Shown piece after piece: positions 50,314 through 56,558 of a stretch of 64,000 bases of DNA. The stretch covers positions 1,515,991 to 1,579,990 of the forward strand of contig NZ_CP050191.1 of NCBI RefSeq assembly GCF_011745145.1. The letters are read 5' to 3'. Made by a program: the position numbers and the translations under genes. A model generated the notes under the pieces. The model searched no databases and was not told where the DNA came from. It was given only the letters and a program-made list of their open reading frames with translations. The number at the start of each line of letters is the position of its first letter. The stretch's first letter is position 1. The stretch is from Mycobacterium sp. DL440. Its GTDB lineage: Bacteria; Actinomycetota; Actinomycetes; Mycobacteriales; Mycobacteriaceae.

Positions 50314-51648
50314 ATGGTTGAACCCGAAGGCGATGTTCCTGTCACGCCGGCCACCACCCGCCGGATTGCCGGTCTGGCGTTTCCGGCGCTGGGTGTGCTG
50401 GCCGCCGAGCCCATCTACCTGCTGTTCGACATCGCGATCGTCGGGCGGTTGGGTGCACTCAGCCTGGCCGGGCTGGCCATCGGCGGCCTGATCCTGGGCC
50501 TGGTCAACTCGCAGGGCACGTTCCTGTCCTACGGCACCACCGCGCGCTCAGCCCGCATGTTCGGGGCAGGTGACCGCCAGTCCGCCGTCGGTGAGGGCGT
50601 GCAGGCCACCTGGCTGGCGCTGGGTCTGGGGTTGCTCATCATCGCGGTGGTCCAGGCCGCCGCGGAACCGCTGCTGTCGGTGATCGCCGGGCGCTCCGAC
50701 ATCGCGGACGCCGCGCTGCCCTGGCTGCGCATCGCCATTCTCGCCGCCCCGGCGATCCTGGTGTCGTTGGCCGGCAACGGCTGGATGCGCGGGGTGCAGG
50801 ACACCGTCCGGCCACTGCGCTACGTGGTGTTCGGATTCGCCGTGTCAGCAGTGCTGTGTCCGCTGCTGGTGTACGGCTGGTTGGGCCTGCCGCGACTGGA
50901 ATTGGCCGGCTCAGCGGTGGCGAACGTGATCGGGCAAGGGGTGGCGGCGCTGCTGTTTCTGCGGGCCCTGCTGATCGAGAAGGTTGCGCTACGGGTCCAG
51001 CCCGCGGTGCTGCGCGCCCAGTTGACAATGGGTCGCGATCTGCTGCTGCGGTCGTTGGCGTTTCAGGCCTGCTTCCTGTCGGCCGGGGCCGTCGCGGCGC
51101 GGTTTGGGGCGGCGGCGGTGGCGGCGCATCAGGTCGTCCTGCAGGTGTGGAGTTTCCTTGCGCTGGTGCTGGATTCGCTCGCCATCGCCGCACAGTCACT
51201 CGTGGGTGCGGCATTGGGTGCCGGCCAACTGGCGCATGCCAAGAGCGTGGCCTGGCGGGTGACGCTGTTCTCCACGATGGCCGGCGTGGTGCTGGCCGTG
51301 GTGTTCGCCCTCACTTCGTCGGTGCTGCCGGCGGTGTTCACCGATGACGAGTCGGTGCTGGCGGCGATCGGCGTGCCGTGGTGGTTCCTGGTTGCTCAAC
51401 TGCCCGTGGCCGGAATCGTCTTCGCCCTCGACGGCGTGCTGCTGGGTGCGGGCGACGCGAAGTTCATGCGCAACGCCACCCTGACCAGCGCGCTTGTCGG
51501 CTTCCTGCCCTTGATCTGGTTGTCGCTGATCTACGGCTGGGGACTGTTCGGCATCTGGTCGGGGCTGAGCACGTTCATGGTGCTGCGGCTGATCTTCGTC
51601 GGCTGGCGTGCGTTCTCAGGTCGCTGGCTGGTGCCGGGGACCGCCTAA
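50314..51648 (+). CDS. dinF: MATE-family efflux protein DinF
   Basis: 444 aa with 12 predicted membrane helices in two similar halves (FPALGVLAAEPIYLLFDIAIVG, and the repeat SLAFQACFLSAGAVAARFG). DinF-type MATE pumps export drugs or metabolites using Na+ or H+. Same place as Rv2836c, at the end of the translation operon. It overlaps the convergent monooxygenase gene by four bases. Confidence 0.9.
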   Translation: MVEPEGDVPVTPATTRRIAGLAFPALGVLAAEPIYLLFDIAIVGRLGALSLAGLAIGGLILGLVNSQGTFLSYGTTARSARMFGAGDRQSAVGEGVQATWLALGLGLLIIAVVQAAAEPLLSVIAGRSDIADAALPWLRIAILAAPAILVSLAGNGWMRGVQDTVRPLRYVVFGFAVSAVLCPLLVYGWLGLPRLELAGSAVANVIGQGVAALLFLRALLIEKVALRVQPAVLRAQLTMGRDLLLRSLAFQACFLSAGAVAARFGAAAVAAHQVVLQVWSFLALVLDSLAIAAQSLVGAALGAGQLAHAKSVAWRVTLFSTMAGVVLAVVFALTSSVLPAVFTDDESVLAAIGVPWWFLVAQLPVAGIVFALDGVLLGAGDAKFMRNATLTSALVGFLPLIWLSLIYGWGLFGIWSGLSTFMVLRLIFVGWRAFSGRWLVPGTA

Positions 51649-52994
51649 CGGCGCGAGCGTTCGGAGCGCCACTGTCCGATGTTGTTGCGGACCGCACGCC
51701 CTACCAGCCGGGGCGATGGGGCGAGGTAGAGACTGTCGAGCAGACTCGTGCGCCGGAGGAACCATTCGGCCAGCACGGGGTCGGTTTCCGCTGCGCCGAG
51801 GAACTGGTCGAAGAGGCCGTACAGCGGCCCGTACCACCATGGCCGGTCGCCCTGGGCGCCATGCTCGGCATAATCGGCGACCGCGTTCATGAGCCACACC
51901 GGGTACGTGGTTCGCGCCGTCGCACGTGCCAGTCGGGCAGGGAGATCGTTCATTCCCTCCTCCAGGACGGCATGCAGGTTGGCGGTCTGGATGGCCGTCA
52001 TCGTCACGCCTTGGCCGAAAGTGGGATTGAGGCTCGCGACGGCGTCACCGAACGGCACGATCCCGTCGGGCAGCTGCGAGAGTTTGTCGTATCGGCGCCA
52101 CTTGCTGGTGGGGTAGCGGTAGAACGTCATGCCGCCACGCGGATCGCCGGCTTGAAGCGCGGAACTGATGTGCGCCGGCAACAGGGTCTGGGCCAATCGG
52201 CAGATGCCGGCGAAGTCATCGGGAGGTTGCGTCTTGGCCACCCCGAATGCCGTTACGGTCCAGATACCGTCCTCGTGGAACAGCATGCCCATGCCGAGCC
52301 GGCTGTCCCGTGCGGCACTGACCAACACCATTTTCTCCGCGATCAGATCGGCGGGAATCCGAACTCTGTGCGAGGCATAGCTGACCCCGACGTGCACGGT
52401 GTCTTCCCTGGGGAGATCGAAACCCCATTGCTGCAGCCACACCGGAAGGCGGCTGCCCCGGCCCGAGGCGTCGACAACAAGATCAGCGGGGACTCGGTCG
52501 CCACCGTGGAGGACAACCCCGGTGACCCGATTGGTCTCGGGATCGAATTGCGGCTGCGAGACCACCTGATGTGCCAGCCCGATCGACGGGATGGCGTTGA
52601 CGCGCTCGCGGATCTGCCATTCGAGTTGTCCGCGGCTTGGCACGTACGCGGTAAAGCTGTCATGCAACCCGTGCCCGGTACCAAGGATATGACCGGCCGC
52701 AGCGAAATGAATTGACTCCGGCTGGTTGTGCACGACCGGAACGCCGGCGTCGGCCATGTCGTGGAGGAGTCCTGGAAACACACGTTCGAGTTCTTGCGCT
52801 CCGCGGGCCATCAGGAGGTGAACGTGCTGACCCTGGGGTATCGCCGGGCGGTTGATTGGTTCGTCCGGCAGTTCATCTCGCTCGTACACCGTGACACGGT
52901 CGAAGCGGTCCGACAGCACACGAGCCGCGCACAGGCCGGCGATGCTGCCGCCGATGACCACCGCGTGGTTCATGGGATGGTCGACTGTCCTCAT
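51645..52994 (-). CDS. FAD-dependent monooxygenase (squalene-epoxidase/halogenase-like)
   Basis: 449 aa from the ATG at 52992-52994, chosen because AGGAGG lies nine nt upstream. FAD loop VIGGSIAGLCAARVL near 14-28; DLVVDASGRGSRLP and the FAD-ribityl motif VPFGDAVASLNPTFGQGV identify a group A flavin monooxygenase. In mycobacteria such proteins oxidise lipids or aromatics; the substrate is unknown. It directly follows a reductase gene, its probable electron donor, and is downstream of a SigK-like promoter. Confidence 0.85.
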   Translation of the reverse strand: MRTVDHPMNHAVVIGGSIAGLCAARVLSDRFDRVTVYERDELPDEPINRPAIPQGQHVHLLMARGAQELERVFPGLLHDMADAGVPVVHNQPESIHFAAAGHILGTGHGLHDSFTAYVPSRGQLEWQIRERVNAIPSIGLAHQVVSQPQFDPETNRVTGVVLHGGDRVPADLVVDASGRGSRLPVWLQQWGFDLPREDTVHVGVSYASHRVRIPADLIAEKMVLVSAARDSRLGMGMLFHEDGIWTVTAFGVAKTQPPDDFAGICRLAQTLLPAHISSALQAGDPRGGMTFYRYPTSKWRRYDKLSQLPDGIVPFGDAVASLNPTFGQGVTMTAIQTANLHAVLEEGMNDLPARLARATARTTYPVWLMNAVADYAEHGAQGDRPWWYGPLYGLFDQFLGAAETDPVLAEWFLRRTSLLDSLYLAPSPRLVGRAVRNNIGQWRSERSRR

Positions 52995-53007
52995 CGACAA
53001 ATTCCTC

Positions 53008-55296: not shown

Positions 55297-55863
55297 ATGG
55301 CAGATTCGCCGGGGCCGGGCAGCGACGACCTCAATGATCTGCTGCGCCGGGTGGCCCGGCGCGATGTCGTGGCATTCGCGATGTTCTACGACCACACTCG
55401 GGCGCGGGTTTTCGGGCTGGTCAGTCGGGTCCTTCGCGATCGGGGCTACAGCGAGGAAACCACGCAAGAGGTTTACCTTCAGGTATGGCGCAACGCAGCG
55501 TCTTTCGACTCTTCGGCCGGCTCTGCGGCGGCATGGCTGATTACGCTGGCGCATCGGCGTGCGGTGGATCGCGTCCGCGCCGAGCAGGCCGCCAGTCGTC
55601 GTGACTCCAAATATGCAGCGATGTCCGGCGAGCCGCCGGCTGACGTCGTGGTAGACACGGCCACGCTGTCAGAGGAACACCGCCAAGTGGTCGAGTGCCT
55701 GGATGCGCTGTCCGACGCGCAGCGCCGGTGCATCGAACTGGCCTACTACCGCGGGTTGACCTACCCCCAGGTGTCGGCGCGGATTGCGGTCAACCTCGCC
55801 ACCGTCAAGTCACGGATCCGCAATGGTCTGCAGAACCTCCGTCGCTGTCTGGGCGCCGCATGA
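55297..55863 (+). CDS. sigK: ECF sigma factor SigK
   Basis: 188 aa from ATG 55297; a TTG nine bases upstream is less likely. Region 2 (AFAMFYDHTRARVFGLVSRV) and region 4 (RRCIELAYYRGLTYPQVSAR) match SigK, including the RGYSEETTQEVYLQVWRNA segment. In M. tuberculosis SigK drives mpt70/mpt83 and its own operon and is held by RskA. The next gene is rskA, overlapping by four bases (ATGA). Confidence 0.9.
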   Translation: MADSPGPGSDDLNDLLRRVARRDVVAFAMFYDHTRARVFGLVSRVLRDRGYSEETTQEVYLQVWRNAASFDSSAGSAAAWLITLAHRRAVDRVRAEQAASRRDSKYAAMSGEPPADVVVDTATLSEEHRQVVECLDALSDAQRRCIELAYYRGLTYPQVSARIAVNLATVKSRIRNGLQNLRRCLGAA

Positions 55864-56558
55864 CAGAACCAGACGGATCCGAATTGCTGGAGTTGGCGGC
55901 GTCCTACGCATTGGATGCGGTCTCGGACCGTGAGCGCGCCGAAGTCGAACGCGGGGTCGACGCTGCGCCGGCGGACGTGTCGGCGGCGTTCCACGAAGAG
56001 GTGCGCGGCATTCGAGAGACCATGGCGCGGCTTTCGAACGTCACCGCCGTCGAACCACCGGCGCATCTGCGTGAGCGGGTCCTGATGGCCGTCAACGCAT
56101 CGTCGCGTCGGAATCGTTGGCGGACAGCGGCATTGGCCGCTGCTGCCGCTGTGGTGATCGCGATCGCGGCGTTCGGCACCGGCATCGCGCTACGACCGAC
56201 CTCACCGCCTCCGTCGGTCGCCGAACAGGTGTTCGGCGCCACGGACGTACGGTCTGTCAGCGGGGTCGTTCCGGCCGGCGGCACGGCGACGGTCGTCTAC
56301 TCGCGGGAACGCGACGCCGCGGTCTTGGTCATGAACGGCGTTTCTCCGCCCGCCGCGGACACCGTCTACCAGATGTGGCTACTTGACAGCGGGAAACCGA
56401 GGTCGGCCGGCACACTCAGTCCTGCTGCGGTTGCCCCGTCCACCACCGACACGATCCTCGATCTCGGCACTGCCAACACCCTCGCGTTCACGGTAGAGCC
56501 GGGTTCCGGCTCGGAGCAGCCTACGGGGCAGATATTCGTCCAACTGCCGCTTGACTGA
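55860..56558 (+). CDS. rskA: Anti-sigma-K factor RskA
   Basis: 232 aa. Cytoplasmic anti-sigma domain (about 1-75: LLELAASYALDAVSDRERAE), one membrane helix at 89-111 and an extracytoplasmic RskA domain (about 120-232: VYQMWLLDSGKPRSAGTLSP). Regulated intramembrane proteolysis, with Rip1 (2795-4015) as a known protease in M. tuberculosis, would release SigK. ATG 55860 was chosen for the ATGA overlap; earlier starts lie in sigK. Confidence 0.92.
   Translation: MTEPDGSELLELAASYALDAVSDRERAEVERGVDAAPADVSAAFHEEVRGIRETMARLSNVTAVEPPAHLRERVLMAVNASSRRNRWRTAALAAAAAVVIAIAAFGTGIALRPTSPPPSVAEQVFGATDVRSVSGVVPAGGTATVVYSRERDAAVLVMNGVSPPAADTVYQMWLLDSGKPRSAGTLSPAAVAPSTTDTILDLGTANTLAFTVEPGSGSEQPTGQIFVQLPLD

What the first reader, a model, noticed from the sequence alone, without database searches (positions are those of the whole stretch)
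51645..56558. SigK locus rebuilt around a mycolic-acid methyltransferase and an FAD monooxygenase/Fe-S reductase pair
In M. tuberculosis, as I recall, the sigK operon carries ufaA1, a DUF1295 gene and others. Here a CmaA/MmaA-type methyltransferase gene is directly before sigK-rskA, and a flavin monooxygenase with its reductase is divergent. The block may be a RIP-controlled envelope lipid modification module: membrane signal, Rip1 cleavage of RskA, SigK release, then changes to lipids. This grouping is the best candidate in the window for an undescribed system.
Basis: partly seen in the sequence, partly recalled or inferred. Interest (0 to 1): 0.75.

Follow-up and report, generated by a model that had tools for sequence, protein, structure and literature searches.

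The report
Portable SigK cassette for lipid modification
This mycobacterium lacks the usual operon for the membrane-controlled switch SigK and instead carries a second version of it beside a mycolic-acid methyltransferase and oxidation genes, facing each other from two SigK-type promoters, with part of the oxidation pair deleted.

Summary
The core is real: a CmaA-type mycolate methyltransferase (MT), sigK and rskA in one direction, an FAD monooxygenase on the other strand. The "Fe-S reductase" is only a C-terminal piece.

Mycolicibacterium septicum and two unnamed species keep a fuller module. There MT-sigK-rskA is divergent from a PF10118 gene (predicted diiron protein) and its reductase. In the window the PF10118 gene is a stub running out of frame into the reductase: a recent deletion or an assembly fault.

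A matrix trained on 21 canonical sigK-operon promoters finds its best site of the 64 kb on the divergent side of this intergenic region and its third best on the MT side. In 22 other genomes the close MT carries such a site without sigK beside it; in one more it ends the canonical sigK operon.

The four module SigKs form their own clade. The window genome has no other sigK; its canonical site keeps both flanks but holds mmpS-mmpL-marR. Close kin have another gene where the module sits.

Best reading: a transferable SigK lipid-modification cassette that took over from the canonical operon. Regulation rests on sequence; the lipid product is inferred. No expression or lipid data.

The parts
54306..55211 (+). 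MT, CmaA-type mycolic acid methyltransferase, 301 aa
   Evidence: Pfam CMAS 393 bits, NCBIfam NF040660 over cut-off; CmaA1 E 5.5e-146
55297..55863 (+). sigK, ECF sigma factor of a separate SigK clade
55860..56558 (+). rskA, membrane anti-sigma factor, overlaps sigK by ATGA
54214..54243 (+). SigK-type promoter of MT-sigK-rskA (GTGATCC, then CCGAAT)
   Evidence: score 13.2, third of the window; 13.2-14.5 in the 4 module genomes
54063..54092 (-). SigK-type promoter of the divergent unit (CCCATCC, then CCGAATAC)
   Evidence: score 26.7, best of the window, next 13.8; 19.3-28.7 in the other 3 module genomes
53849..54025 (-). N-terminal stub of a PF10118 (predicted diiron) gene; rest absent
   Evidence: 62% to residues 7-67 of the 318-aa relative
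53008..53754 (-). C-terminal remnant of an FAD/NAD/2Fe-2S reductase
   Evidence: Fer2 and NAD domains; homology begins at residue 91 of the 377-aa relative, in another frame than the stub
51645..53000 (-). FAD monooxygenase related to polyene epoxidases, 451 aa
   Evidence: Lsd18/LasC E 1.9e-39, MonCI E 9e-38; 79% in M. septicum

Best explanation
A transferable SigK lipid-modification cassette. A distinct SigK lineage, held by RskA at the membrane, drives its own unit (MT-sigK-rskA) and a divergent oxidation unit from two SigK-type promoters in one intergenic region. On a membrane signal RskA would be cut (Rip1 likely), SigK freed, and MT with the oxidation enzymes would change mycolic or fatty acyl chains. 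In relatives the oxidation unit is a PF10118 diiron-type protein and its reductase. Here that pair is broken, leaving MT and an epoxidase-type FAD monooxygenase. The cassette lies between the MATE and echA16-like genes, and the canonical sigK operon is gone from its own site. Shown by sequence: gene identities, promoter sites, SigK clade, state of both chromosomal sites. Inferred: horizontal transfer, signal, RskA cleavage, substrates, order of events.
For: Gene identities. Same module with PF10118 gene and reductase intact in M. septicum, sp. NS-7484 and sp. GA-1841. Promoters: matrix from 21 canonical promoters puts the two module sites first and third in the window. Among 68 genomes with a close MT, 26 have a site of 12 or more upstream of it; 22 of these have no sigK beside MT in the stretch held; shuffled upstreams reach 12 in 0.36%. 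In G343 the MT follows rskA of a canonical operon directly. PF10118 gene: 9 of 29 genomes score 12 or more. MT site goes with presence of the PF10118 gene: 17 of 18 against 9 of 50, Fisher p 1e-8; the PF10118 site occurs in 9 of 18 genomes that have both genes in the sample and 0 of 11 of the others, p 0.005. SigK clade SH-aLRT 100. One SigK in the genome, next hit 27%. Canonical site: flanks kept, operon absent. MATE/echA16 site: module in 0 of 29 relatives' loci. dN below dS in MT, sigK, rskA and the monooxygenase.
Against: No expression, binding or lipid data. The MT-side site has GATCC, not CATCC, and scores 13.2; shuffles of the region gave up to 12.7 in 60 tries, and an unrelated window site scores 13.8. 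8 of 29 canonical-type loci gave no training hit. 3 of 33 neighbouring paralogues also score 12 or more. Related genomes are not independent, so the Fisher values are too strong. 42 of 68 close MTs show no site. The monooxygenase is in 2 of 4 module genomes. The reductase remnant changes no faster than intact copies. An adapter-like stretch (29 of 33 bases) sits elsewhere in the same assembly, so its details are not fully safe. Apart from the module, the own-genome motif scans gave no convincing further target.
Confidence: 0.7

Rival explanations
1. The canonical sigK operon merely moved and swapped its ufaA1-type gene for a CmaA-type one; there is no separate SigK lineage.
For: Only one sigK in the genome; the canonical operon also carries a CMAS-family gene; in G343 a CmaA-type MT has joined the canonical operon.
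Against: Module SigKs form one clade apart from canonical ones, and M. septicum carries a module sigK together with a canonical one. None of the amine oxidase, DUF1365, ufaA1-type or DUF1295 genes is at the module.
Confidence: 0.07
2. SigK controls only MT-sigK-rskA; the divergent genes are unrelated passengers.
For: The monooxygenase is beside the module in 2 of 4 genomes, its family shows no SigK-type site, and the divergent unit is broken in the window.
Against: The divergent side has the best SigK-type site of the 64 kb; such a site is before the same PF10118 gene in 9 of 29 genomes.
Confidence: 0.13
3. The broken divergent unit is an assembly error and the organism carries the complete module.
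For: Adapter-like stretch in the same assembly at about C1:4155178; the remnant shows no faster protein change.
Against: One contig, 100% complete by the tool's estimate; in the window adapters match no better than reversed controls (at most 21 bases).
Confidence: 0.25

Closest known systems
Canonical mycobacterial sigK operon (Rv0449c-Rv0444c type; most Rv assignments recalled)
   Same: SigK with RskA, a CMAS-family gene in the operon, a SigK-type site in front; autoregulation via Rv0449cp is reported for M. tuberculosis (PMC7509140, passages).
   Different: Separate SigK clade, other site, CmaA-type instead of ufaA1-type enzyme, no amine oxidase, DUF1365 or DUF1295, and a divergent oxidation unit with its own SigK-type site.
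BfaA/BfaB and UfaA1 in 10-methyl stearic acid synthesis (PMC5660069, abstract and passages)
   Same: A SAM methyltransferase acting on acyl chains; in BfaA/BfaB with an FAD oxidoreductase encoded beside it.
   Different: The oxidation partners here are of other families, and MT is of the short mycolate type.
sigK1-rskA1 and sigK2-rskA2 of the M. mucogenicum clade (PMC6917791, passages)
   Same: Two sigK-rskA pairs in one genome, as in NS-7484 and GA-1841.
   Different: The main text has no match for 'methyltransferase' or 'cyclopropane'; whether sigK2 there is this module was not tested.
EphD and epoxymycolates of M. smegmatis (PMC7998700, passages)
   Same: Shows that mycolates can carry epoxides in a rapid grower.
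   Different: Concerns the hydrolase; the link of our monooxygenase to epoxymycolates is a guess.

Membership tests
SigK | Match to the SigK family model over its cut-off | tested here: met
   PRK09646 280.1 bits, cut-off 226; 4nqw_A E 5.4e-74
SigK | Two conserved cysteines (133 and 183 in M. tuberculosis, PMC7509140 passages) | tested here: met
   Cys 137 and 187 of the 191-aa reading, 134 and 184 from the ATG, aligned with cysteines of 4nqw_A
RskA | RskA_N and RskA_C domains, one membrane helix, gene next to sigK | tested here: met
RskA | Regulated cleavage by Rip1 | not testable with these tools
   a Rip1-like gene is present; cleavage needs an experiment
Canonical sigK operon | Amine oxidase, DUF1365, ufaA1-type CMAS and DUF1295 genes in front of sigK | tested here: not met
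   absent at the locus and at the canonical site; best DUF1295 in the genome 21.9 bits against 231 in M. septicum
Mycolic acid methyltransferase (CmaA/MmaA/PcaA) | Family model over cut-off, full-length alignment to CmaA1 | tested here: met
   NF040660 503.6 bits, cut-off 390; CmaA1 4-287 aligned
Mycolic acid methyltransferase (CmaA/MmaA/PcaA) | Acts on mycolate precursors | not testable with these tools
   needs lipid analysis
Diiron carboxylate oxygenase, for the PF10118 protein of relatives | R2/AurF-like fold with Glu and ExxH ligands | tested here: inconclusive
Flavin polyene epoxidase (Lsd18/MonCI) | Sequence relation over most of the chain | tested here: met
   8wvb_A E 1.9e-39, residues 12-364 of 451
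Flavin polyene epoxidase (Lsd18/MonCI) | Epoxidation of alkenes | not testable with these tools
   needs an enzyme assay
Phthalate-dioxygenase-type reductase | FAD, NAD and 2Fe-2S parts in one chain | tested here: not met
   window copy lacks about 90 N-terminal residues; the intact relative matches 2pia_A E 8.5e-47

The most novel reading that the evidence does not exclude
A SigK regulon has been packed into one mobile block. Its targets (methyltransferase; diiron-type oxygenase with reductase) are scattered SigK-promoter genes in some mycobacteria, a divergent pair without sigK in G237 and M. aquaticum (G378), and a pair plus sigK-rskA in four genomes. In this lineage the block replaced the canonical SigK system. 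Chemically it would be an oxidise-and-methylate route on mycolic double bonds, switched on by a membrane signal, with an epoxidase-type flavoprotein as extra or substitute oxidant, perhaps giving epoxymycolates or cyclopropanes on demand.
Probability: 0.35. Interest if true: 0.75.

Novelty: new variant of a known kind. Interest (0 to 1): 0.6.

Why it matters
SigK is studied mostly through its antigen genes in M. tuberculosis and M. bovis, and what the pathway is for in other mycobacteria is open. A lineage that lost the canonical operon and depends on a compact SigK-lipid block would tie the switch directly to mycolate chemistry. It would also show how a scattered regulon can be gathered into a transferable unit, and it points to a PF10118 protein plus reductase as an uncharacterised lipid oxidation pair.

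Tried and rejected
Chance neighbours: rejected for MT-sigK-rskA because the order is kept in four genomes. Monooxygenase as general SigK target: rejected, 35 upstream regions (duplicates included) score at most 7.6. N-terminal piece of the reductase upstream in the window: the fragment I first took for it proved to be PF10118. Further SigK targets in the own genome: 11 exact pattern hits, two of them the module sites, control 0; 10 hits at up to 3 mismatches, control 3, one hit at 1 mismatch, which is the module's divergent site; the other sites looked at lie mostly inside or antisense to genes or have no evident gene (not all hits were looked at). MT-sigK gap of the window: a CCGAAT there has no good -35 and is not among the top 15 sites. 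Epoxymycolate link: nine paper searches in all; the three on this question listed no mycolate epoxidase, and no listing described a CmaA-type gene at a sigK locus. The key paper on SigK regulon evolution (Veyrier 2008, recalled) is not held, so part of this may be in print. Adapter search by fuzzy matching timed out and was redone without gaps. Sequence search of the PF10118 profile in the PDB gave nothing solid (best E 0.022). The PWM's form was suggested by the module sites and by recall, then trained on other loci; three hits outside the upstream regions were dropped from the 24.
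Full report
What is there. The window belongs to a one-contig mycobacterial genome of 6,381,854 bases. Within the finding lie an FAD monooxygenase (51645-53000, -), a reductase piece (53008-53754, -), a CmaA-type methyltransferase, MT (54306-55211, +), sigK (55297-55863, +) and rskA (55860-56558, +). MT is nearest to CmaA1 (488.9 bits), MmaA2 (483.8) and PcaA-type 1l1e (469.5); MmaA4, CmaA2, UmaA and MmaA1 score 334 to 366. SigK and RskA match the solved pair 4nqw. 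The monooxygenase is related to the polyene epoxidases Lsd18/LasC and MonCI.

The reductase is a remnant. In M. septicum (L069), sp. NS-7484 (L070) and sp. GA-1841 (L071) the unit divergent from MT begins with a PF10118 gene of 312-318 aa followed by an overlapping reductase of 377-415 aa. In the window a stub matching residues 7-67 of that PF10118 protein runs, in another frame, into a piece matching residues 91-377 of the reductase. The piece changes no faster than intact copies (dN 0.157-0.185 to the three relatives, 0.166-0.180 between M. septicum and the other two), so the deletion is recent or an assembly fault. The same assembly holds an adapter-like stretch (29 of 33 bases) in a gene at about C1:4155178; in the window no adapter matches better than reversed controls.

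Promoters. In 29 other sigK loci (L072-L100), a pattern [AG]TCC-N14-16-CCGAAT gave 24 hits against 8.5 in shuffles; 21 lie on the sigK strand upstream of sigK, one each in 21 loci, and 8 loci gave none there. A matrix from these 21 (consensus CCCATCC ... GCTCCGAATAC) scores the divergent side of the window at 26.7, the best of 64 kb on both strands; the next is an unrelated 13.8 and the third, 13.2, is the MT side. In the three relatives the divergent side scores 28.7, 24.0 and 19.3 and the MT side 13.2, 13.2 and 14.5.

The same genes elsewhere. Of 396 genus genomes searched with MT, 68 of the best-ranked MT loci were read. 26 of 68 have a site of 12 or more within 200 bases (best copy of 70% or more in the locus); shuffles reach 12 in 0.36% and 3 of 33 neighbouring paralogues do. 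sigK is beside MT in 5 of 68: the four module genomes and G343, where MT follows rskA at the end of a canonical operon. For the PF10118 gene, the 29 full-length hits of 64% or more among 396 genomes (a thirtieth, in G311, is partial) all have the reductase beside them, and 9 of 29 have a site of 12 or more. MT sites go with presence of PF10118: 17 of 18 against 9 of 50 (own genome counted as without), and PF10118 sites occur in 9 of 18 genomes that have both genes in the sample and 0 of 11 others. Shared ancestry weakens these tests.

Two SigK lineages. The four module SigKs form a clade with SH-aLRT 100 in a quick tree of 73 rows, two of them very long branches. M. septicum also has two further sigK genes at 63%, one in a canonical operon; NS-7484 and GA-1841 have one further sigK each at 63%, which form another branch and have no DUF1295 gene in the genome. 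Matching of NS-7484 to G159 and GA-1841 to G217 rests on equal contig numbers and identities. The window genome has no other SigK (next 27%); 35 of 37 genus members, own included, have one.

Two chromosomal sites. Compared with G020, whose MATE protein is 95% identical, the own genome keeps both flanks of the canonical sigK operon but has mmpL, mmpS and a MarR gene in place of the operon. At the MATE/echA16 site, G020 has a class I methyltransferase-like gene between the two (read by eye), G013 a similar one, and G005 has the two genes 9 bases apart; the module is at this site in 0 of 29 relatives' loci.

Mechanism. SigK-RskA switches, RskA cleavage by Rip1 and SigK autoregulation are known from M. 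tuberculosis (PMC7509140, passages and one section). A Rip1-like protease is in the window. From the promoters we infer that freed SigK raises MT, itself and the divergent unit. The PF10118 model (pLDDT 88.8) resembles R2/AurF/CmlI diiron proteins, with invariant Glu and ExxH residues, but the scores are in a range where helical bundles can match by chance. A diiron oxygenase with its own reductase, and MT, would suit oxidation and methylation of acyl chains. In the window only MT and the epoxidase-type monooxygenase remain intact, so its product may differ from that of its relatives.

Noticed in passing
L250 (G000:C1:4152000-4168000), about 3876-8960: Canonical sigK site of the own genome holds mmpL, mmpS and a MarR-type gene in place of the sigK operon.
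   Followed up: partly
L250 about 3179-3211 (C1 about 4155178): Stretch matching a Nextera-type adapter in 29 of 33 bases inside a luciferase-like monooxygenase gene: likely assembly contamination.
   Followed up: partly
L280 (G343:C143:25000-41000), 3350-9608: Canonical sigK operon with a CmaA-type methyltransferase (75% to MT) directly after rskA.
   Followed up: partly
L196 and L197 (G237 and G378, M. aquaticum): MT and PF10118-reductase divergent with SigK-type sites on both sides, but no sigK within the 16 kb read.
   Followed up: partly
M. septicum genome G297: Three SigK genes: module (81%), canonical (63%) and a third (63%).
   Followed up: partly
window 2822-3919: Rip1-like M50 protease with PDZ domains, about 50 kb from rskA.
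   Followed up: partly
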